From assembly GCF_036320485.1 (NCBI RefSeq), contig NZ_CP132911.1:2356001-2420000 (forward strand): a stretch of DNA of 64,000 nt, in the 5' to 3' direction. This document shows, piece after piece, positions 2,994 to 64,000 of this stretch. The notes beneath the pieces are model-generated. The model saw nothing but the letters and a program-made list of their open reading frames with translations. It was not told where the DNA came from and ran no database searches. How positions within the stretch are numbered: the first letter of the stretch is position 1; every line of letters starts with the position of its first letter. A program made the position numbers and the translations under genes. Origin of the DNA: Dyella sp. A6 (lineage in GTDB: Bacteria > Pseudomonadota > Gammaproteobacteria > Xanthomonadales > Rhodanobacteraceae).

Positions 2994-4883
2994 GTGGCAA
3001 CACTCATTCCGACCCGCAACAGCTGCCTGCCGCGGATGACCGGCGGCGAAAAGCGCGTTTCCGAACGACTGGAGCAGAAGCTCGAAGACGACTACCTGCT
3101 GTGGTACGACGTGCCGATCGGGCTGAAGCAGCGCCGTCCGGATTTCGTGGTGTTCCATCCACGCCGCGGCCTGCTGGTGCTGGAGGTGAAGGACTGGAAA
3201 GCCGACACCGTCCGCCACGCCGACCGCACCCAGGTCACCCTGGTCACCGACCGCGGCCTGACGAAGGAAACCAATCCGCTGCTGCAGGCGCGCGCCTACG
3301 CCCTGGAAATCGGCGTGGTGCTGGAACACGACCCGGCCCTGCGCCACCCGGAAGGCCATCGGCATGCCGGCAAGCTGATCATGCCCTGGGCGTTCGGCGT
3401 GGTGCTGGCCAATGTTACCCGCCGGCAATTCGAGGAGGGCGGGCTGGACGCGGTGATCCCGCCGCACCTGGCGATCTGTCGCGACGAACTGTACGAGACG
3501 GTGGACGCCGAGGTGCTGCAGGAACGCCTCTGGGCCATGTTTCCGCAGGTGTTTCCGGTGGCCCTGACCCTGCCGCAGATCGACCGGGTGCGCTGGCACC
3601 TGTTTCCGGAACTGCGGGTCGAGCCGGGCAATGGTCAGTTCGGCCTTTTCGCCAGGAGCGGCGAGACTTCGACGCGTGCGCTGGCGATTCCCGATCTGGT
3701 CAAGGTCATGGACGCCCAGCAGGAACAACTCGCCCGCTCGCTGGGCGACGAACACCGCATCATTCATGGCGTTGCCGGGTCCGGCAAGACGATGATCCTG
3801 GGCTTTCGCGCGATGCAGCTGGCGCGTGCGATGCAGCGCCCGATCCTGGTGCTCTGCTACAACAAGACGCTGGCCGCACGACTCGACCAGCTGATGGGCG
3901 AACGCGGCCTCAGCGACAAGGTGCAGGTCTACAACTTCCACAAGTGGTGCCGGCAGATGCTCTCCGCCTACCACGTCGACCTGCCGTCGAAGGAAGGCAA
4001 GAGTACCGACGCCTTCTTCGCCGAGATGGTCGAGCAGGTGATCGCCGGCGTGGACCGCGGCCAGATTCCGCGCTTCCAGTACGGTGCCGTGCTGGTGGAC
4101 GAAGGCCACGACTTCGAGCCGGACTGGTACAAGCTGATCGTGCAGATGATCGACCCGGCCACCAACTCGCTGCTGGTGCTGTACGACGACGCGCAGAACA
4201 TCTACGGCCAGGCCCACCGCAAGCAGGTGAGCTGGAAGAGCCTGGGCGTGCAGGCGCAGGGGCGCACGACCATTCTCAAGCTCAATTACCGCAACACGCT
4301 GGAGATCCTCGCCGTGGCACGCGGCTTCGCCAGCGAGCTGTTGACCGAGCGCGTGGGCGAGGACGACGACGTGCCGCTGATCGCGCCGGAAAGTGCCGGC
4401 CGCCGTGGTCCGCTGCCGGAACTGATCCGCACCGATACCGCCGCCGCTCAGCTGCAGGTGCTGATCACCCAGCTGCGCGACGAATATGCACATGGTCGTC
4501 CCTGGTCCGACATGGCGGTGATCTTCCGCAATCAGTGGGAGGGCGAGAAACTGCAGGAAGCACTCAAGCGCGAGGACATACCCTGCCGCCTCGCCGAGGG
4601 CAACGGCAAGAGCTCGCTGTTCGTGGTCGAGGACAGCGTGAAGCTGGTCACCATGCATTCCAGCAAGGGACTCGAGTTCCCGTTCGTGATCATCCCCGGC
4701 CTGGGCTCGCTGCCCAAGGCCGGCAAGAGCGAGGCGGACGAGGCTCGCCTGCTTTACGTGGCCATGACCCGTGCCACCGAACGGCTGCTGCTGATCCACC
4801 ATGACGACTCGGTCTTCAGCAAGCGCATCCGCGATTCGATCAACGATGTGCAGGCGCAGCTGGCACCGCCTGAGCGGGATTGA
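2994..4883 (+). CDS. NERD domain-containing UvrD/Rep-like DNA helicase
   Basis: 629 aa from GTG at 2994, chosen because the N-terminus then reads VATLIPTRNSCLPRMTGGEK as in this family; the frame extends 20 codons further upstream without family-like sequence. Residues 15-150 form a NERD nuclease-related domain with the nuclease-like D50...E64-V-K66 (PDFVV...LEVKDWK). Residues about 255-610 form a superfamily 1 helicase: Walker A GVAGSGKT (about 260-267), VDEGHDF (Walker B, about 367), SKGLEFPFVI (about 556) and LLYVAMTRATERL (about 585). Such proteins are presumed to process DNA in repair, and some NERD-helicases occur in defence contexts. Here it is a lone gene between the aroG leader and an SH3 protein, with nothing supporting a defence island. 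Confidence 0.88.
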   Translation: MATLIPTRNSCLPRMTGGEKRVSERLEQKLEDDYLLWYDVPIGLKQRRPDFVVFHPRRGLLVLEVKDWKADTVRHADRTQVTLVTDRGLTKETNPLLQARAYALEIGVVLEHDPALRHPEGHRHAGKLIMPWAFGVVLANVTRRQFEEGGLDAVIPPHLAICRDELYETVDAEVLQERLWAMFPQVFPVALTLPQIDRVRWHLFPELRVEPGNGQFGLFARSGETSTRALAIPDLVKVMDAQQEQLARSLGDEHRIIHGVAGSGKTMILGFRAMQLARAMQRPILVLCYNKTLAARLDQLMGERGLSDKVQVYNFHKWCRQMLSAYHVDLPSKEGKSTDAFFAEMVEQVIAGVDRGQIPRFQYGAVLVDEGHDFEPDWYKLIVQMIDPATNSLLVLYDDAQNIYGQAHRKQVSWKSLGVQAQGRTTILKLNYRNTLEILAVARGFASELLTERVGEDDDVPLIAPESAGRRGPLPELIRTDTAAAQLQVLITQLRDEYAHGRPWSDMAVIFRNQWEGEKLQEALKREDIPCRLAEGNGKSSLFVVEDSVKLVTMHSSKGLEFPFVIIPGLGSLPKAGKSEADEARLLYVAMTRATERLLLIHHDDSVFSKRIRDSINDVQAQLAPPERD

Positions 4884-55385: not shown

Positions 55386-55568
55386 CGCCCATCTCCTAAT
55401 CAGGCGGCACTGTACACCCGGCAAGCGGGCCTGACCGTAGCGACCTGTCCGCCACTCCCGGAAAGACGTCCGCATGATCCGCGCAGGCTTGCCGACCTTT
55501 GACAGATGGGCAAGGCGCATCAATCATCGGCTTCCGTCGCCACGAATACCATGCCGGGAGCCACACCG

Positions 55569-56780
55569 ATGACGCCTTGCCGCACGTTGCGCTCGATCGC
55601 CGCATTCGCCCTGCTCGCACTGCTGGCCGGCACGCCCGCGCACGCACTCGACAACGGCCTCGCACGCACACCGCCGATGGGCTGGAACAGCTGGAACGCG
55701 TTCCACTGCAACGTCAGCGCCAAACTGGTCGAGGCGACGGCCGATGCCATGGTGGCCTCCGGCATGAAGGCTGCGGGCTACACCTACGTCAACATCGATG
55801 ACTGCTGGCTGCTGAAGCAACGCGGCCCGCACGGCGAGCTGGTGCCGGACCCGGCGAAGTTTCCGCAAGGCATCAAAGCCGTGGCCGACTACGTGCACAG
55901 CAAGGGCCTGAAGCTCGGCATCTACGAATCGGCCGGCGCCACCACCTGCGCCGGCTACCCGGGCAGTCTCGGCCATGAGAAGCAGGATGCCCGGCAGTTT
56001 GCCAGCTGGGGCGTGGACTACCTCAAGTACGACAACTGCGGCGACCGGGATGGCGAGACCTATGAGCAGCGCTATACCGCCATGCGCGATGCGCTGCTGG
56101 CGACCGGGCGACCGATCGTCTACAGCCTGTGCGAATGGGGCAGAAAGTCGCCGTGGCGCTGGGCGCCATCGGTCGGCAACCTCTGGCGCACCACCCAGGA
56201 CATCACCCCACGCTGGCATACCGACCAGCCGGACAACCAATACCCGCAGGGCATCCTGGACATCCTCGACCAGCAGGCCGCGCTGTCGCATGCGTCGCAC
56301 CCTGGCGCATGGAACGACCCGGACATGCTCGAAGTCGGCAACGGCTACCTCAGCGACAACGAGAACCGTGCGCACTTCAGCCTGTGGGCGCTGCTCAATG
56401 CCCCGCTGATCGCAGGCAACGATCTGCGTCACATGTCCGATGCCGTGCGCAGCATACTCACCAACCGCGAAGTGATCGCGGTGGATCAGGACTGGGGCGG
56501 TCGCCAGGGCTACCGTGTCCATCGCAACGGCAACGCCGATGTCTGGGCCAAGCCCATGTCCGATGGCTCGGTCGCGGTGATCCTGCTCAACCGCGGACGC
56601 GGCCCGCTGCACATCGCCACTACTGCCGCTGCCATCGGCCTGAAGCACGCCGCCAGCTACACCGTGCGCAACTTGTGGCAACACCGCAGCCACATGAGTC
56701 GAGGTGTCATCGCAGCCGACGTGCCCACCCATGCGGTGGCAATGTTCCGTGTCTGGCCGGGCAAGCACACGGTACTTTAG
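55569..56780 (+). CDS. Secreted GH27 alpha-galactosidase
   Basis: 403 aa from ATG at 55569 (GGGAG 8 nt upstream). Signal peptide in residues 1-26. GH27 landmarks: TPPMGWNSWNAFHC, YVNIDDCW, YLKYDNCG with nucleophile Asp155, and WNDPDMLEVGNG containing the acid/base Asp. The C-terminal beta domain runs from about residue 305. It cleaves terminal alpha-galactose from glycans or plant galactomannans outside the cytoplasm. Its TAG stop overlaps the stop of the convergent effector gene by 2-3 bases. Confidence 0.94.
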   Translation: MTPCRTLRSIAAFALLALLAGTPAHALDNGLARTPPMGWNSWNAFHCNVSAKLVEATADAMVASGMKAAGYTYVNIDDCWLLKQRGPHGELVPDPAKFPQGIKAVADYVHSKGLKLGIYESAGATTCAGYPGSLGHEKQDARQFASWGVDYLKYDNCGDRDGETYEQRYTAMRDALLATGRPIVYSLCEWGRKSPWRWAPSVGNLWRTTQDITPRWHTDQPDNQYPQGILDILDQQAALSHASHPGAWNDPDMLEVGNGYLSDNENRAHFSLWALLNAPLIAGNDLRHMSDAVRSILTNREVIAVDQDWGGRQGYRVHRNGNADVWAKPMSDGSVAVILLNRGRGPLHIATTAAAIGLKHAASYTVRNLWQHRSHMSRGVIAADVPTHAVAMFRVWPGKHTVL

Positions 56781-58174
56781 GCAGCAGAGGCGGGCCCGCC
56801 TCCTCCGCTGCTCGGTGGTATATCCTGTGATGACGGCAGCCGCGACTGGGTCTGTGCGACCGGTTCGCGGGCATTCGCCCTGATCTGCGCTTGCAACTGA
56901 TCGTGCTGCCGAATCTGCTCGATGGACTGCGAGGCCTGTGGCGAGGGCATCTTCACATCCACACTCACGCCCCGGAACGGCTGCCCTTCCTGGCGCCCGC
57001 CGAAACTGACTACGCCAAGCTGTTGATCGAAAACGACGTCTTTCAGATTGTGATCGGTGATGCCATGGACGTGGCAGGCTGCCGTGAACTGCAGCAGGCG
57101 ATTGTCGGACGCCTCTGGAAAGCGATATTTCAGATCGCTGAAGAGAACATGGTTCGGATTGAACAGGTTTCGCGGGTCGTCCATGTCGGGCATACGCGCA
57201 GGCTCTGCAGACACAGCCGGCAACAAGCTTGCGGTACCGCGCCTGAGCATGCTCATTTCTGAATCGATGGCACGCCATGTGGCGGGCCCGACCTGACCGT
57301 CGATCGTCAGTCCACGAGTACGCTGGAAACCCTCTACCGCGCTTCTTGTGGCCACACCGAATTTGCCATCGGCCAACAACAAGTGCCCCGTGTCGTCAGT
57401 ACACCCCAACTCAGAAAGCACCGCTTGTAGGTCTCGCACCGCGGCACCATGGTCACCGTAGCGGAGCACATCGCCAGCCCTGCCAGACGAGTGATCTGCC
57501 ACCCGGACCTTCGGACCAAGACCCAGCTCGGCCATCGCCATGTTGAAGCGGGCTTCCCGACTCCTGATTGCACGTTTGTTGGAAGGATTACGACCGTATG
57601 GTGTCGCGTCGATGAAGTGTTGCAAATCTTCACGCGTTGGCGGATCACCCACCTTTACCCCACGCTCGACCTTTCCCACCAAAAAATCGACGAGCACGTC
57701 ATCGTGACGACTCGAAAACTGATTTGCGTAATCAGCGATGCCCAGCTTCAACTTCATATCCGCATCAATTGAATCACCTGTATGCGAATTTCGCTTACGC
57801 ACTTCATCAACGATAGCATTAACACGCTGAATCGCAATATCCAGTTGATGATTAGTAAAAGCGTCGATCTTCGAGGGTGGGATTGACTGCAATTTGGCAT
57901 CAAGCAAAAGCCGGTCTTTTCTTGAAAGCCCTCTATACAATTTCAACTTCGATATATCAGAATCATCAAATCCGTGGCCCAACAAAAATGCTTGTGCATC
58001 AGGATTCGCTCCAACATCGAACTGCATCTGGCCAAATGATGAAGAGCTACTTCCGAGACCTGCACAGGAGAAATGTCGTGACTTTGAGACTTTACCACCG
58101 AGACCGGTAGCGACAAGAACAGCACGGAGCTGTTCACGTTTAATATCGTTACTGCCAGACATGGGAGCCACCAT
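56777..58174 (-). CDS. Putative T4SS antibacterial effector: N-terminal hydrolase-like region, peptidoglycan-binding domain, XVIPCD-like C-terminus
   Basis: 465 aa (start 58174; ATG 58162 is an alternative). Residues about 30-220 are a helical region of unknown enzymatic type, with SSSSSFGQMQFDVGANPDAQ at 42-61. Residues about 235-304 are a PG_binding_1 domain (VLRYGDHGAAVRDLQAVL, FGVATRSAVEGFQRTRGL, DGQVGPATW). From 332 the sequence fits the XVIPCD pattern of Xanthomonas T4SS effectors: DPRNLFNPNHVLFSDLKYRF, NRLLQFTAACHVHGITDHNL, then a glutamine-rich tail (QASQSIEQIRQHDQLQAQI). No signal peptide, as expected for a VirD4-recruited effector. The preceding immunity gene ends 17 bp upstream. 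A VirB/VirD4 apparatus is not in the window. Confidence 0.78.
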   Translation of the reverse strand: MVAPMSGSNDIKREQLRAVLVATGLGGKVSKSRHFSCAGLGSSSSSFGQMQFDVGANPDAQAFLLGHGFDDSDISKLKLYRGLSRKDRLLLDAKLQSIPPSKIDAFTNHQLDIAIQRVNAIVDEVRKRNSHTGDSIDADMKLKLGIADYANQFSSRHDDVLVDFLVGKVERGVKVGDPPTREDLQHFIDATPYGRNPSNKRAIRSREARFNMAMAELGLGPKVRVADHSSGRAGDVLRYGDHGAAVRDLQAVLSELGCTDDTGHLLLADGKFGVATRSAVEGFQRTRGLTIDGQVGPATWRAIDSEMSMLRRGTASLLPAVSAEPARMPDMDDPRNLFNPNHVLFSDLKYRFPEASDNRLLQFTAACHVHGITDHNLKDVVFDQQLGVVSFGGRQEGQPFRGVSVDVKMPSPQASQSIEQIRQHDQLQAQIRANAREPVAQTQSRLPSSQDIPPSSGGGGPASAA

Positions 58175-58191: not shown

Positions 58192-58506
58192 CTATCCGCG
58201 ACCACCACAGTCATAGACAAAATCAACAAGATCCTTACGCATCAACTCATGCCCACTTATCGCCCTAACCTGAAAAGAACCCCACATCTCATCACTACAT
58301 ATCTCAACACTCTTCCGTCGTTGTCCATTTTGCAATGTGCATAAGCCACCAACGACCCGCTCTCCACGCCCAGGACCGATGTGCGACCCATCCCATACAC
58401 CAATCAGCTTTTTACATTGAACAATCTTTCCGGCAACGGTATTTTTCCAAGAGATTATTGAATAGATCAACGTATTCATTGGCATTACGATAAAATCGAA
58501 CAACAA
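58192..58506 (-). pseudogene. Continuation of the immunity protein in a shifted frame
   Basis: In the next frame the sequence reads VAGKIVQCKKLIGVWDGSHI, then GRGERVVGGLCTLQNGQR, EICSDEMWGSFQVRAI and LVDFVYDCGGRG, ending at 58192 just 17 bp before the effector start. It looks like the missing C-terminal domain of the LprI-like protein. Removing one A from the A5 run at 58442-58446 joins both parts into one 230-residue protein. So this is either a real single-base frameshift, a sequencing error, or a slippage site. The first ATG of this frame on its own has no good Shine-Dalgarno. Confidence 0.6.
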
Positions 58507-58885
58507 CGCCGCACCCTTTAGATGGACCCTTATAATTCGTTGGCCTCATGCAATCAGACACATGGTTTTCGTTGCCACTTGAATTACTCGCCAGCACAGC
58601 AACACGATCGACATAGACCTGACGCAGACAGGCAGTATCCTGACAAACTCCTCGCGCATACCTTATCCAGTTGCGCTGTTGCTTGATCAGCGCGACCTTG
58701 CCGCTGGCATCTCTTGCCGACAACGCAGTCGCGTACGCCTGCTGCAGCTTGGTATCGAGCACAGAAAGCCGAGCATCGGCGCAGATCATCTTCTCGACAT
58801 GTGTGCTCGCCTTCATGCAATCGAAGCCAACCGCATGCACACCAAGCGAAGCGCCCAGCAAGACCCATGCGAGAACAGGTTTCAT
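58412..58885 (-). CDS. LprI-like periplasmic immunity protein candidate
   Basis: 157 aa as read, from ATG at 58885 (58909 is an alternative). Signal peptide MKPVLAWVLLGASLGVHAVG. Residues 23-98 form an LprI/DUF1311-type domain with FDCMKASTHVEKMICADARL, SVLDTKLQQAYATAL, LIKQQRNWIRYARGVCQDTA and four Cys (23, 35, 81, 86), typical of lysozyme inhibitors and of immunity proteins against peptidoglycan-hydrolysing effectors. The frame stops at 58412 after DLFNNLLEKYRCRKDC, but an overlapping frame continues the family-like sequence (see 58192-58506). AT-richer than flanking genes. It precedes the effector gene, as in known effector-immunity pairs. Confidence 0.75.
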   Translation of the reverse strand: MKPVLAWVLLGASLGVHAVGFDCMKASTHVEKMICADARLSVLDTKLQQAYATALSARDASGKVALIKQQRNWIRYARGVCQDTACLRQVYVDRVAVLASNSSGNENHVSDCMRPTNYKGPSKGCGVVVRFYRNANEYVDLFNNLLEKYRCRKDCSM

Positions 58886-59417: not shown

Positions 59418-61844
59418 TCAGGCATGCGGTGGCGGGTAGGACGGCGGCGCGTCCTTCAGATTGCTGCCCCACGCCTTGTCCGGCGTGGCCTGCAGGGTGA
59501 AGCGCAGGTGTCCGCCGTGTACCGCGAACTTGGCCGGCAGCCACGGCTGGTCGACCGCCTTGCCGTCGAGCTGCAGTGCATGCACGTACGGAGTTCCGGC
59601 CGAGGCACCCGGCGCCTCGATCACCACATCGCCGCCGGGCCGGCGGATCTCGGCCTGCGAGAACAACGGGCTGCCGACGACCAGGTCGGCACTGCCGGGA
59701 ATTTCCGGATAAAACCCCAGCGCCGACCACACGTACCAGGACGACATCTCGCCCAAATCGTCGTTGCCGGGAATCCCATCGGGTGCGTCTTTCCACAGTG
59801 CGTTCACCACTGCGCGCACGGTGGCCTGGGTCTTGTAGGGCTGACCGGCGAAGTCGTACAGCCATGGCGTTTCCACCGAAGGCTCGTTGTTCAGTTCCGC
59901 ATGCAGTGGGCCGGCATTGGTAAACGCCCAGCGCCCGTCGGCATGATGGAAGAAGCGGTCCAGCCGCGCCACCGCCGTGCCATAACCGCCCATCGCGTCG
60001 AACAGGCCGTGCAGGTCGAACGGCACCATCCAGACGTAGACCGCTGCACTGGCTTCGACGAAGCCGTCGTCGCTGGACGGCTTGAACGCCGGCCAGCTGC
60101 CGTCGGCGTTGCGGTTCTGGATATAGCCACCGTCGGCTGTGGCCTTCGGGTTGTACAGGTTGCGCCAGTAACCGGCCCGCGCAAGGAAGCGGCGCTGGTT
60201 GGCGGCATTGCCGACATCGGCGGACAGCTCGGACAGAGCGAAGTCGGCGGTGGCATCTTCCAGCGTTTCGGCCGCACCGCCCCAGGCATGTGATTGGGTG
60301 GCGATGTAGTGCAGCTTCAGCCACTGGTCCAGCGACGGGCGTTCGCCCACACATTCCACGTTGCAGCCAGCGTTGGACTCGTCGTTTGCCGTCGGCACGG
60401 TCGCCGCGCGGACCAGCGAGGCGTAGGCGCCGCGCAGGTCGAAGTGGTGACCGCCGAACGCATAGATGTCCGCCAGCGCCGGCACGGCGGGGTCGCCGCT
60501 CATCACATGGGTGCCACCGCTGTTGTGCGTCCAGCGGTCCCACTCTCCATGGTTCTGTCGTGCCTGGTTGTACAGCGACTGGGCGATGTCGCTGCCGACC
60601 TTGGGCATCAGCCAGGTCACCAACTGCAACTGCGAGCGGTAGACATCCCAGCCGGAAAAGTTGGCGTACTGCGCATGCTGGCCGCCATGCACGCGATGGA
60701 CCTTCTGGTCGAAGCCGCGGTACTCGCCGTCGACGTCGCTGAACACATTCGGATGCAGCAGGCTGTGGTACAGCGCGGTGTAGAACACCGTGCGCTGGCC
60801 GGGCGTACCGCCCTGGATGCGGATGCGGCCAAGCGCCCGGTTCCACGCCTGGTGCGCTTTCGCCCGCACCTGCGCCAACGTGGTGCCGGCCGGAATCTCC
60901 GCGTCCAGATTGGCGCGCGCGTTGGCAAGACTAACGTAGGAAATACCCACGTGCATCTGCACCGGCCCCTTGCGCGGGTCGAACGACACCCATACGCCGG
61001 AGCCCTTGCCTACGGTCGGGAAACCCTTGGCGTCGTACCCGGTGCCGCCGTGCGCGACGCGCGAGCCCTTATGCACCATCGCGTCCTGCCAGGCTCCGGT
61101 GGCGATGAACGGCCGATCGAAACGGGCCACGAAGTACAGCGTGTAATAGCTGTGCTGATCGGCCTTGGACAGGTAACCGCAGAAGTTGCCGCTGGTCACC
61201 GAGCCGCTGACGGTCCGCTGCGCGCGGTCGATGCGGGCCGATGCCGCGCTGCTGCCGACTTCGGAATCCGACGCCCGGAAAAGCAGGTTCGCCGGCTTGC
61301 CTGCGGGAAACTCGAAGCGTGCCATGCCGCTGCGCATCGCCGCCGCCAGTTCCACCTGCACGCCATTGGCCAGCGCGACCCGATAGTCGCCCGGCACCGC
61401 ACGTTCGTCGGCATGGCTGAAGTTGGCGGCGTAGCGCGTGTCGCCGTCGTCGGTCGAAGGCGACGCGGTCACCGGCAAGGTCACCGGCATCACCGGGATA
61501 TCGCCACTCGCGCCGGCACAGCCCGCGCCGGAAAGATGGGTGAGGCTGAAGCCGCGAATACGCGTGGTGTCGTACTGGTAGCCGCTGGGCGACGCGGTGC
61601 GCGTGTGATGGCCGCGCGTGTTCTCCGGACTCCACTGCAGCATGCCGAACGGCATCACCGCGCCGGGATAGGTGTTGCCGCCATTGCTGCTGCCGATCAG
61701 TGGGTTCACCGCGTCCGCCGGGGCCGATGCGTTCGTCGCAGCCGCGGCACACGCCACCACCCCGAATAGTGCACTACCCCATGCCAGACGCCGTAGCCAG
61801 CTACTCATCGGACCCGCCTGCGTCCAGGCCTTCGCTTTCGACAT
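59418..61844 (-). CDS. Exported GH92 alpha-1,2-mannosidase
   Basis: 808 aa. Start ATG at 61844 has AAGGGGG upstream; ATG 61808 also fits the signal peptide MSSWLRRLAWGSALFGVVACAAAA (with a possible lipobox VVAC). GH92 landmarks: VNPLIGSSNGGNTYPGAVMPFGM (family start), GYQYDTTRIRGFSLTHLSGAG, ARFDRPF, the central TVFYTALYHSLLHPNVFSDVDGEYRGFD (shown as overlapping pieces), and EMSSWYVWSALGFYPEIPGSADLVVGSP, with the GNDDLGEMSSW catalytic segment. Calcium-dependent exo-mannosidases of this family trim N-glycans. A CG-centred palindrome lies 28 bp upstream of the start. Works logically with the PNGase A at 44556-46415. Confidence 0.95.
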   Translation of the reverse strand: MSKAKAWTQAGPMSSWLRRLAWGSALFGVVACAAAATNASAPADAVNPLIGSSNGGNTYPGAVMPFGMLQWSPENTRGHHTRTASPSGYQYDTTRIRGFSLTHLSGAGCAGASGDIPVMPVTLPVTASPSTDDGDTRYAANFSHADERAVPGDYRVALANGVQVELAAAMRSGMARFEFPAGKPANLLFRASDSEVGSSAASARIDRAQRTVSGSVTSGNFCGYLSKADQHSYYTLYFVARFDRPFIATGAWQDAMVHKGSRVAHGGTGYDAKGFPTVGKGSGVWVSFDPRKGPVQMHVGISYVSLANARANLDAEIPAGTTLAQVRAKAHQAWNRALGRIRIQGGTPGQRTVFYTALYHSLLHPNVFSDVDGEYRGFDQKVHRVHGGQHAQYANFSGWDVYRSQLQLVTWLMPKVGSDIAQSLYNQARQNHGEWDRWTHNSGGTHVMSGDPAVPALADIYAFGGHHFDLRGAYASLVRAATVPTANDESNAGCNVECVGERPSLDQWLKLHYIATQSHAWGGAAETLEDATADFALSELSADVGNAANQRRFLARAGYWRNLYNPKATADGGYIQNRNADGSWPAFKPSSDDGFVEASAAVYVWMVPFDLHGLFDAMGGYGTAVARLDRFFHHADGRWAFTNAGPLHAELNNEPSVETPWLYDFAGQPYKTQATVRAVVNALWKDAPDGIPGNDDLGEMSSWYVWSALGFYPEIPGSADLVVGSPLFSQAEIRRPGGDVVIEAPGASAGTPYVHALQLDGKAVDQPWLPAKFAVHGGHLRFTLQATPDKAWGSNLKDAPPSYPPPHA

Positions 61845-62027: not shown

Positions 62028-62043
62028 TGTCGGACTTCTTTAC
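62028..62043 (+). promoter_or_regulatory. Upstream activator motif copy 1
   Basis: TGTCGGACTTCTTTAC. Identical at 13 of 16 positions to copy 2 (63171-63186), and 80 bp upstream of the -24 element at 62108. Candidate binding site of an NtrC-type enhancer-binding protein. Confidence 0.6.
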
Positions 62044-62106
62044 AGAACAGCAGATCGCGCCAAGACGCTCGCACGCCAATTGCTTGATATTCAAAGGCAC
62101 TCAGGG

Positions 62107-62123
62107 CTAGCACGCTTCTTGCT
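62107..62123 (+). promoter_or_regulatory. Sigma-54-like -24/-12 promoter of the PEP-CTERM gene
   Basis: CTAGCACGCTTCTTGCT matches the TGGCACG-N4-TTGC[A/T] consensus except that the -24 GG reads AG; the spacing between the -24 and -12 dinucleotides is exactly 10 bp. Weaker than the second promoter at 63252, but with the same upstream motif 80 bp away. Confidence 0.5.
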
Positions 62124-62352
62124 TCGTATTACATGCATTGCGCTGGGATGGCAGGTTTGTCCGTCAGATTCACAGGAGGCATGGCAGAGGATCCTGAATC
62201 CATCCGCCAGATACCGCCAGAAAGTCGCAGTGGTTTGAGGTCAGAGATTTGCAGTGACCACGGGGGGACGCCAGGACGGCATGTGTATCGCTTCAAGCCG
62301 GGTCGGCAATTCTTTAAACGAAGATCGATGAACCTACGGAATGAGCATTGCC

Positions 62353-63075
62353 ATGAAGACATACACCAAATCACTGCTTGCGATGTTGGCCGTACTCCTC
62401 GGGAGTATCTGTTTCGTGGGGACGGCCTCGGCGACGGTCCTGGAGATGAACACGCTGTATGCGGGTGAGTATCCGGCGGCCCCGATCAGCGGTCCGGGCA
62501 CGCCCTGGCTGACCGCTACGTTGAGCTACGGCGGGCCAAGCGCCACCCAAGGCCTCTACGACTACACGCTGACCATGCAGTCGTATCTCAGCAACAACGA
62601 GTTCATCGGCGGCGCCAACAAGAATATCGGCTGGGCCTTCAGCCTGGCGAACATCCCCTACAGCATGGCCTTTGCTTCCGGTACGGCGGCCAATTCGACC
62701 CGGACCAGCGGCATCCTGACCGGTTCGGTTCCGGGCACCTACAACCTGGCTTTCTATTGGAAAGCCAACACCTTCACGACCGATTCGTATGCCGTCTACG
62801 CGATTGAAACCAGCACTGCGCCTACCAGCTCATTCTTCAAGATGACGGGTCTCGACGGGCTCTACTCGGCGGCGCACATCCAGGGCATCACGGGCACCAA
62901 CCAGACCTGCAGCGTGTGGATCGTCAACGGCGGCACGTCGGGCTTCACACCCAGCCTGACCTCATGCGGGGCAACGAACGTGTCGGTTCCCGAGCCCTCC
63001 GAGCTGCCGCTCTACGCACTGGGTCTGGTACTTGTCCTCACCGGATGGTACGCAGCCAGAAGGCGTAGGCAGTAA
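62353..63075 (+). CDS. PEP-CTERM sorting domain-containing exported protein
   Basis: 240 aa from ATG at 62353 (GGAATGAG 8 nt upstream; ATG 62341 is in frame). Signal peptide MKTYTKSLLAMLAVLLGSIC...ASA. The C-terminus VPEPSELPLYALGLVLVLTG (from residue 212), a membrane span and a basic end ARRRRQ form a typical PEP-CTERM signal, recognised by an exosortase that cleaves and anchors or releases the protein. The body is beta-rich, Gly/Ser/Thr-rich, without a known domain. PEP-CTERM proteins are linked to exopolysaccharide/biofilm matrix genes; the exosortase is not in the window. Confidence 0.85.
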   Translation: MKTYTKSLLAMLAVLLGSICFVGTASATVLEMNTLYAGEYPAAPISGPGTPWLTATLSYGGPSATQGLYDYTLTMQSYLSNNEFIGGANKNIGWAFSLANIPYSMAFASGTAANSTRTSGILTGSVPGTYNLAFYWKANTFTTDSYAVYAIETSTAPTSSFFKMTGLDGLYSAAHIQGITGTNQTCSVWIVNGGTSGFTPSLTSCGATNVSVPEPSELPLYALGLVLVLTGWYAARRRRQ

Positions 63076-63096
63076 TCTGATCCAATCTTCGATACA

Positions 63097-63131
63097 TGAC
63101 GCCCCGTGCAACCGCCGGGGCGTCATTGTTT
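63097..63131 (+). terminator. Terminator downstream of the PEP-CTERM gene
   Basis: TGACGCCCC/GGGGCGTCA, 9-bp stem, 11-nt loop, then TTGTTT, 22 bp after the stop codon. Separates the two transcription units, so the metalloprotease needs its own promoter. Confidence 0.82.
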
Positions 63132-63170
63132 GTGCGCCCGTTCCAGCATGGAGGCGGATACGGCGTCATG

Positions 63171-63186
63171 TGTCGGAAACCTTTAC
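63171..63186 (+). promoter_or_regulatory. Upstream activator motif copy 2
   Basis: TGTCGGAAACCTTTAC, 13 of 16 bases as in copy 1, 81 bp upstream of the -24 element at 63252. It is extended on the right by GGCTAAGACA, giving TGTC...GACA symmetry. Confidence 0.6.
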
Positions 63187-63251
63187 GGCTAAGACAAATC
63201 CCAAAAGATCGCTCTTCCGAAATGCCAAAGCCTTTCAGACACTTAACATGA

Positions 63252-63267
63252 TGGCGCATATATTGCT
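63252..63267 (+). promoter_or_regulatory. Sigma-54 -24/-12 promoter of the metalloprotease gene
   Basis: TGGCGCATATATTGCT: -24 GG at 63253-63254, -12 GC at 63265-63266, 10 bp between, matching the TGGCACG-N4-TTGC consensus in both invariant dinucleotides. The start codon follows about 50 bp downstream. Confidence 0.7.
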
Positions 63268-63317
63268 TATTTTTTAGTCGGTTACAGCCTTCATCTGCCA
63301 ATAGAGAGGAGACCGCG

Positions 63318-64000
63318 ATGACATCGGTGGTTCGAAACTCTCGATTCGCAAGGTGGCTATCCGCCACGTTCATCGCCGCCGCCTTTCCCATGGCCGCCCA
63401 TGCCGTGGTGATCAACTACACATTTGATTCCAGCTTCGCCGGATCCGGAGCCAACGGCGCGGCCATGGAAGCAGCCTTCGGCCAGGCCGCCGCCTTCATC
63501 GAGGCCAATTACAGCAATCCGTCGAGCATCAACCTGGTAGTCGGTTACGGCTCGATCGACGGATCAGCGATGGGTTCTAGCAGCCTGGGCGAGAGCCTCG
63601 CCTACCTGTACCAGAGTGGATACGCCAAAGTCCGGAATGCGCTGCAGACACTGGGCACGCCCGGTTCGGGCAGCTTGCCGCAGACCGGACCAAGTGACCT
63701 TTTTGCAACCACCGCCGAGGCGAAGGCGCTGGGCCTGATACCCAACAGCACGGCCACAGACGGCTATCTCGGTTTCTCCAGCACTTATGTCTTCGACTAC
63801 ACCCCGTCCAATGGCATCACCGTGGGCAGCTACGATTTTTTCGGCGTCGCATTGCATGAAATAACCGAAGCCATGGGACGGCTGTCATTGAAGGACAGCA
63901 ACTTTCCATATCCGTCCGTCATGGACATGTACCGCTACAGCTCTGCCTCCGGCGACTACTTCTCGCTGAACGGCGGCGCGACCCCACTCGCCTACTTCAA
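63318..64000 (+). CDS. Exported NF038122-type metalloprotease (C-terminus outside window)
   Basis: 227 codons visible, from ATG at 63318 (AGGAG 7 nt upstream). Signal peptide of about 29 residues (SATFIAAAFPMAAHA). The mature part reads INYTFDSSFAGSGANGAAME, FIEANYSNPSSINLVVGYGS, SDLFATTAEAKALGL and VGSYDFFGVALHEITEAMGR, with His180-Glu181-x-x-Glu as the zinc motif. I recognise this as the family annotated NF038122, found in genomes with PEP-CTERM systems; a PEP-CTERM tail would be expected beyond the window. It has its own sigma-54-type promoter. Confidence 0.8.
   Translation, partial: MTSVVRNSRFARWLSATFIAAAFPMAAHAVVINYTFDSSFAGSGANGAAMEAAFGQAAAFIEANYSNPSSINLVVGYGSIDGSAMGSSSLGESLAYLYQSGYAKVRNALQTLGTPGSGSLPQTGPSDLFATTAEAKALGLIPNSTATDGYLGFSSTYVFDYTPSNGITVGSYDFFGVALHEITEAMGRLSLKDSNFPYPSVMDMYRYSSASGDYFSLNGGATPLAYF

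What the first reader, a model, noticed from the sequence alone, without database searches (positions are those of the whole stretch)
62028..63318. Paired sigma-54 promoters with an identical upstream motif 80-81 bp away
Seen: in front of the metalloprotease gene, TGGCGCATATATTGCT (63252-63267) keeps GG-N10-GC, and 81 bp upstream lies TGTCGGAAACCTTTAC. In front of the PEP-CTERM gene, CTAGCACGCTTCTTGCT (62107-62123) has the same layout (AG in place of GG), and 80 bp upstream lies TGTCGGACTTCTTTAC, 13/16 identical. Known: sigma-54 needs enhancer-binding proteins bound around 80-150 bp upstream, and PEP-CTERM loci often come with RpoN and an NtrC-type regulator (PrsR). Inference: both genes belong to one RpoN/EBP regulon for an exported matrix-related system, and the 16-bp motif is the activator site.
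Basis: partly seen in the sequence, partly recalled or inferred. Interest (0 to 1): 0.85.

Follow-up and report, generated by a model that had tools for sequence, protein, structure and literature searches.

The report
Shared switch for surface-protein genes
The two matching DNA signals are a real, already described on-switch for exported surface proteins of the PEP-CTERM kind; what looks new is that in many bacteria its parts sit whole turns of the DNA helix apart, often with a likely DNA-bending site between them.

Summary
The exact 16-bp pattern occurs twice in the 3.72-Mb genome, both at the reported places (about 0.07 expected). The combined element (box, 64-65 bp, -24/-12 promoter) occurs four times, reversed control 0. 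It precedes exactly the four genes matching the PEP-CTERM model: the reported gene, the metalloprotease (itself PEP-CTERM), a third just beyond the window, and one near prsR. The genome encodes PrsT, PrsR, PrsK, exosortase A with its exopolysaccharide locus, one RpoN and both IHF subunits. This is the element Haft et al. published in 2006 (PMC1569441): the inference is right but not new.

Three features I did not find in print. Box-promoter spacing is quantised in helical turns (about 43/53/64/75 bp; 148 of 150 listed sites within 3 bp of a peak). The box is oriented: 297 forward against 6 inverted pairs in 50 genomes. An IHF-type site often lies at a fixed place before the promoter (19 of 81 spacers perfect, 0.3 expected). 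PrsR and IHF binding are inferred.

The parts
62028..62044 (+). PrsR box (Haft 'motif 1'), TGTCGGACTTCTTTACA, before PEP-CTERM gene 1
   Evidence: sequence; one of 2 exact hits in the genome; one of 4 pair hits
62077..62089 (-). IHF-type site CAATTGCTTGATA (reverse complement fits WATCAANNNNTTR with no mismatch)
62108..62123 (+). sigma-54 -24/-12 element TAGCACGCTTCTTGCT (AG instead of GG); 64 bp after the box
62341..63075 (+). PEP-CTERM gene 1, 244 aa (or from the ATG at 62353), tail VPEPSELPLYALGLVLVLTGWYAARRRRQ
   Evidence: TIGR02595 17.4 bits and 16.3, cut-off 16; no Pfam match
63171..63187 (+). PrsR box TGTCGGAAACCTTTACG before the metalloprotease gene
63233..63245 (+). weak IHF-type site TTTCAGACACTTA (2 mismatches), in the same place as the perfect site of gene 4
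63252..63267 (+). sigma-54 -24/-12 element TGGCGCATATATTGCT; its GGC starts 65 bp after the box
63318..64000 (+). NF038122-family metalloprotease with a PEP-CTERM tail; runs past the window end (311 aa, L003:3318-4253)
   Evidence: NF038122 149.4 bits, cut-off 80; TIGR02595 16.6, cut-off 16

Best explanation
These are two of four members of a PrsK-PrsR/RpoN regulon that switches on the substrates of an exosortase A (XrtA/PEP-CTERM) surface-protein system. Proposed working: PrsK phosphorylates PrsR, an NtrC-type response regulator with a Fis-type helix-turn-helix. PrsR binds the 17-bp box, centred near -98 from the inferred start. IHF bends the DNA between box and promoter, so that PrsR, held on a fixed face of the helix, touches RNA polymerase-sigma-54 at the -24/-12 element and drives open-complex formation. 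The PEP-CTERM proteins, one of them a metalloprotease, are then exported and handled by the exosortase. Shown here: the sequences, the genes, the genome-wide exclusivity, co-occurrence with PrsR, helical spacing, orientation bias and IHF-type consensus. Inferred: PrsR and IHF binding, phosphorylation, the start site and surface display.
For: 4 of 4 pair hits precede the 4 genes matching TIGR02595; reversed control 0. prsT, prsR, prsK, xrtA and its EPS locus, rpoN, ihfA and ihfB are present. In 398 genomes of the order, own genome included, 6 of 8 with PrsR have the pair against 11 of 390 without (Fisher p = 6e-8). In 50 genomes reached through the pattern scan there are 297 pairs and 0 reversed-control hits. 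51 of 81 scanned sites are followed by a PEP-CTERM-like ORF against 147 of 1620 random positions. Spacing peaks at 53/64/75 with 0 of 81 in the troughs, and at 43/52/64/75 in the wider range; different turns occur inside single genomes. IHF consensus: 19 perfect and 48 with at most 1 mismatch of 81 spacers, against 0.3 and 6.3 in shuffles and 0 and 6 with the reversed consensus. Literature, passages seen: the element (PMC1569441); RpoN-dependent pepA with a mapped -24/-12 promoter in Aquincola (PMC9850573); PrsK/PrsR needed for flocs in Zoogloea, as told in PMC9012009.
Against: No binding, expression or start-site data for this genome. Gene 1's promoter has AG, not GG, at -24. The metalloprotease promoter has only a weak IHF match (2 mismatches). 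Genes 1 and 2 score just above the PEP-CTERM cut-off, a model that also passes its cut-off in 2 of 14 control genomes. Two of 8 PrsR genomes in the order lack the exact pair. 33 of 81 spacers have no IHF match within 1 mismatch, and 85 of 127 sites lack WWTCAANNNNTTR. 16 of 81 scanned sites had no PEP-CTERM-like ORF and 14 could not be judged. The 6 inverted pairs lie at gaps 51, 62, 63, 63, 67 and 79, mostly near the same peaks, so the inverted orientation may work in a few cases.
Confidence: 0.86

Rival explanations
1. The box is bound by another of the genome's NtrC-type activators rather than PrsR, and the PEP-CTERM genes are only incidentally shared targets.
For: Six other long NtrC-type matches exist in the genome. 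11 of 390 PrsR-less genomes of the order have the pair.
Against: The pair tracks PrsR (6 of 8 against 11 of 390). About 21 genomes of 398 (counted by eye) have hits of the reversed control in the same search, so 11 is within chance. The 4 hits in this genome are the 4 PEP-CTERM genes. The published phylogenetic profile and the Zoogloea genetics reported in PMC9012009 point to PrsR.
Confidence: 0.07
2. TTTACA is the -35 hexamer of an ordinary sigma-70 promoter, and the -24/-12 match is accidental.
For: TTTACA resembles TTGACA (recalled).
Against: No conserved second element shows between -45 and -33 before GG, where a -10 would fall for 64-bp gaps, and the AT profile after the box shows no -10-like peak. 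The -24/-12 element lies at fixed helical distances from the box in many genomes.
Confidence: 0.03
3. The spacer element is only a general A+T-rich or UP-like stretch, not an IHF site; the phasing comes from direct PrsR-polymerase contact without a bend protein.
For: Many spacers lack a good IHF match (85 of 127 without WWTCAANNNNTTR), and the region is A+T-rich.
Against: Perfect consensus in 19 of 81 against 0.3 in dinucleotide shuffles and 0 with the reversed consensus. It is held 25-28 bp before GG in one orientation and mostly 14 (a few at 24) in the other. The conserved AA...TTGA columns also show in the GG-anchored profile.
Confidence: 0.2

Closest known systems
PEP-CTERM cis-regulatory element, motif 1 + motif 2 (Haft et al. 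2006, PMC1569441; passages seen)
   Same: 17-nt motif ending TTTACA, a spacer inside their 32-92 range (mean 62.8, SD 10.6), a sigma-54 motif, upstream of PEP-CTERM genes in genomes with PrsK/PrsR/PrsT; sometimes a second box copy, as at gene 4 here (207 bp upstream).
   Different: In the passages I saw that paper reports only mean and SD of the spacer; it holds none of the words phas-, IHF, bending or palindrom-. Here the spacing resolves into helical-turn peaks, the box is oriented, and an IHF-type site is often present.
RpoN1-dependent pepA promoter of Aquincola tertiaricarbonis (PMC9850573; passages seen)
   Same: PEP-CTERM gene with a mapped -24/-12 promoter and a predicted enhancer upstream; prsK/prsR/prsT in the genome.
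   Different: Start site and rpoN1 dependence were measured there; nothing is measured here.
IHF-assisted sigma-54 promoters in general (PMC7962754; abstract and passages seen)
   Same: IHF site between activator site and promoter, bringing activator and polymerase together.
   Different: There the statement is general; here a whole activator class shows fixed IHF-promoter geometry and turn-by-turn box positions.

Membership tests
PEP-CTERM cis-regulatory element of Haft et al. 2006 | 17-nt motif ending in TTTACA | tested here: met
   TGTCGGACTTCTTTACA; the second box ends TTTACG (one base off)
PEP-CTERM cis-regulatory element of Haft et al. 2006 | spacer of 32-92 nt to a sigma-54 motif | tested here: met
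   64, 65, 64 and 65 bp to (A/G)GC at the four sites
PEP-CTERM cis-regulatory element of Haft et al. 2006 | upstream of a PEP-CTERM gene | tested here: met
   4 of 4 pair hits
PEP-CTERM cis-regulatory element of Haft et al. 2006 | genome has PrsK, PrsR and PrsT | tested here: met
   PrsR 663.6 bits (cut-off 502.6), PrsK 669.8 (300) and PrsT 557.6 (312.2)
sigma-54 promoter | GG-N10-GC at -24/-12, metalloprotease gene | tested here: met
   GG 63253-63254, GC 63265-63266. Also met at genes 3 and 4
sigma-54 promoter | GG-N10-GC at -24/-12, gene 1 | tested here: inconclusive
   AG-N10-GC; one mismatch to TGGCACGNNNNTTGCW (consensus recalled), box and spacing otherwise intact
sigma-54 promoter | transcription start 12 bp past GC and rpoN dependence | not testable with these tools
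   needs start-site mapping and a mutant
XrtA/PEP-CTERM system | exosortase A and associated exopolysaccharide locus | tested here: met
   TIGR03109 271 bits, cut-off 208; EpsB_2, export protein, chain-length, deacetylase, FemAB and amidotransferase models over cut-off; tyrosine kinase and ATPase models just under theirs
IHF site | WATCAANNNNTTR in the spacer | tested here: met
   perfect at 3 of 4 promoters of this genome, 2 mismatches at the metalloprotease
IHF site | bound and bent by IHF | not testable with these tools
   IHF alpha and beta genes are present

The most novel reading that the evidence does not exclude
PrsR boxes are not free-standing enhancers that work at any distance and in either direction. 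They are stereospecific promoter parts: oriented, and placed at whole helical turns (about 10.9 bp steps) from the sigma-54 element, with an IHF bend site held fixed relative to the promoter while the box moves upstream of it turn by turn. This geometry is a shared rule of the PrsR/PEP-CTERM regulon across Alpha-, Beta- and Gammaproteobacteria and some deltaproteobacterial MAGs, and has not been described.
Probability: 0.72. Interest if true: 0.5.

Novelty: new member of a known kind. Interest (0 to 1): 0.42.

Why it matters
The regulon itself is known, so this window adds one more clean example: a four-gene PrsR regulon in a genus where 7 of 7 other sampled species lack PrsR. The wider pattern matters more. 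If PrsR promoters obey a helical-turn rule with a fixed IHF site, promoter prediction for exosortase substrates becomes much sharper, and one spacer-insertion series in a laboratory strain would test whether this class of sigma-54 activator acts from a fixed face of the helix.

Tried and rejected
Box alone with 2 mismatches: 63 hits against 65 for the reversed control, uninformative. Extra weak boxes in the xrtA/prs locus: with 2 mismatches allowed, two were followed by a -24/-12-like match: L043:9637 (+), inside prsT and antisense to it, and L044:542 (+), gap only 17 bp, inside a sugar dehydrogenase gene; taken as chance. sigma-70 reading of TTTACA: no -10 element in the profiles. Second box copies 110-112 bp upstream in 5 of 79 regions, and 207 bp upstream at gene 4: noted, not explained. 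A leader ORF before gene 1: my chosen frame had stops; dropped. PrsR identity table: first script failed, repeated (own PrsR 80-84% to five same-family genomes, 57-59% to the two PrsR genomes that lack the pair).

Limits of the counts. Of 23 further relaxed-only sites in fetched loci, 20 lie at gaps 44, 50-54, 61-64, 68 or 76 and 3 do not (35, 89, 97). The inverted-box pattern was slightly stricter (T where the forward pattern allows A or G on the other strand). The IHF consensus was chosen after seeing it in this genome's spacers and some listed rows.

Literature: no paper in the held library has PEP-CTERM, RpoN and IHF together, none has PEP-CTERM with 'helical phas', and three have PEP-CTERM with 'integration host factor'. 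In two of those three I saw the passages: IHF appears only in the reference list; the third (PMC9453069) was seen in the listing only. Other searches. Subscription papers, such as the Zoogloea prsK/prsR paper cited as reference 19 in PMC9012009, are mostly not held and were not read.

Full report
WHAT IS THERE. The two boxes and two -24/-12 elements are where the finding puts them. The genome is one 3,716,880-base contig, with the window at 2,356,001-2,420,000. The exact 16-bp pattern has two hits, both the reported ones, none for the reversed control, with about 0.07 expected. Loosened to two mismatches it drowns in noise (63 against 65 control hits).

THE REGULON. Just beyond the window lies a third tandem gene with a PEP-CTERM tail (L003:4591-5403). 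Before it stand TGTCGACATTCTTTACA and AGGCACGGAGCTTGCT. The metalloprotease is itself a PEP-CTERM protein: its full 311 aa end in VPEPSELPLFAIGL..., and it matches NF038122 metalloproteases at 149 bits and TIGR02595 at 16.6 against a cut-off of 16. A fourth PEP-CTERM gene sits near prsR and has two boxes 207 bp apart. TIGR02595 finds four genes in the genome, all over its cut-off. The pair pattern, written to cover these sites, finds exactly four places, the same four genes, and no reversed-control hit. So within this pattern the regulon is all of the recognised PEP-CTERM genes and nothing else. The exopolysaccharide genes of the locus are not among the hits.

THE MACHINERY. PrsR, PrsT and PrsK are over their curated cut-offs and adjacent (L043:7126-13415). 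Exosortase A lies about 25 kb away with XrtA-type polysaccharide genes. There is one rpoN, and both IHF subunits are over their cut-offs. PrsR carries receiver, sigma-54 interaction and Fis-type helix-turn-helix domains.

DOES THE PAIR TRACK PRSR? In 398 genomes of the order (own genome included), 8 have PrsR at E <= 1e-140 and 17 have the pair. Six genomes have both, that is 6 of 8 with PrsR against 11 of 390 without (Fisher p = 6e-8). Genomes with reversed-control hits number about 21 (by eye), so the 11 are within chance, though one (G212, 60% complete) looks genuine. All 7 sampled congeners lack both PrsR and the pair. The two PrsR genomes without the pair belong to other families (PrsR 57-59% identical to this one).

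HELICAL SPACING. Their gaps fall in three narrow groups: 52.9 (14 sites), 63.7 (58) and 75.0 (9), with none of 81 in the troughs 56-59, 68-73 and 77-80. The periodicity score was 52.8, against a maximum of 15.0 in 2000 uniform draws. In 50 of those genomes a looser pattern with a free gap of 26-86 gave 297 pairs and no reversed-control hit. The 150 listed (from 23 genomes) peak at 42.9 (7), 52.4 (20), 64.1 (113) and 74.6 (9), plus one at 33; 148 of 150 lie within 3 bp of a peak. The fitted step is about 10.9 bp per turn. Common descent alone does not explain it: one genome (G425, reached through L104, Glacieibacterium frigidum) has gaps 42, 42, 43, 43, 52, 52, 52, 64, 64, 64, 64, 65; another (G429) has 33, 53, 63, 63, 65. 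The four sites here are all on the main peak (64, 65, 64, 65).

ORIENTATION. With the box inverted the same 50 genomes give 6 pairs against 297 forward. The 50 genomes were chosen through a forward site, so at least 50 of the 297 are by construction; the inverted pattern is also slightly stricter. The six inverted pairs have gaps 51, 62, 63, 63, 67 and 79, several near the same peaks, so inversion may be tolerated rarely.

IHF-TYPE SITE. Three of this genome's four spacers hold a perfect WATCAANNNNTTR; the metalloprotease one has two mismatches. In the 81 spacers 19 are perfect and 48 have at most one mismatch, against 0.3 and 6.3 in dinucleotide shuffles and 0 and 6 for the reversed consensus. 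The site is held 25-28 bp before GG in one orientation, and 14 (or 24) in the other. When the box moves by a turn, the IHF-promoter distance stays (26.2, 26.5 and 27.0 bp in the three groups) and the box-IHF distance changes (26.8, 37.2, 48.0) (only 4, 24 and 3 sites). From recalled IHF structure, the bend lies some 7 bp to one side of the consensus, which would put the bend of both orientation classes about 20 bp before GG; this is inference. Only 42 of 127 sites carry the wider WWTCAANNNNTTR, so the site is common but not universal, or is degenerate.

WHAT IS KNOWN. Haft et al. 2006 (PMC1569441; passages seen) described the box (17 nt, TTTACA at its 3' end), the spacer (mean 62.8, SD 10.6, 32-92), the sigma-54 motif, 99 of 167 proteobacterial PEP-CTERM genes, and the match with PrsK/PrsR/PrsT. 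An RpoN1-dependent PEP-CTERM promoter was mapped in Aquincola (PMC9850573; passages), and prsK/prsR are reported to be needed for Zoogloea flocs (told in PMC9012009; passages; original not read). So the finding is a correct rediscovery. I found no mention of helical spacing or IHF for this element in the searches, which cover open-licence papers only.

VERDICT. Real and functionally sensible; known in kind. The new part is quantitative: spacing in helical turns, a strong orientation bias, and a frequent IHF-type site. PrsR and IHF binding remain to be shown.

Noticed in passing
L003:7904-9451 (-), about 3.9 kb past the window end (genome 2,423,904-2,425,451): A 515-aa reverse transcriptase matching the defence family DRT5 end to end (PADLOC Drt5, 678.8 bits).
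   Followed up: partly
window 56777-58174 (-) and 58412-58879 (-): A 465-aa protein with a peptidoglycan-binding domain next to an LprI-type lysozyme-inhibitor protein; from recalled features of its C-terminal tail it could be an antibacterial effector with its immunity protein.
   Followed up: partly
window 59418-61844 (-), divergent from PEP-CTERM gene 1, and 55506-56780 (+): A GH92 glycosidase and an alpha-galactosidase beside the PEP-CTERM cluster.
   Followed up: partly
L043:17138 and 16931 (-), before PEP-CTERM gene 4: Two PrsR boxes 207 bp apart; in 5 of 79 regions elsewhere a second copy lies 110-112 bp upstream. Whether these second copies act is unknown.
   Followed up: no
G403:C479, boxes near 3625-3641 (locus reached through L081): One box appears to be shared by a forward pair and an inverted pair on the other strand, as if serving two divergent promoters.
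   Followed up: no
own genus, 7 other genomes: 7 of 7 sampled congeners lack PrsR, whereas five other genomes of the same family (genera g8 and g11) have a PrsR 80-84% identical to this one: a patchy distribution, by loss or transfer.
   Followed up: partly
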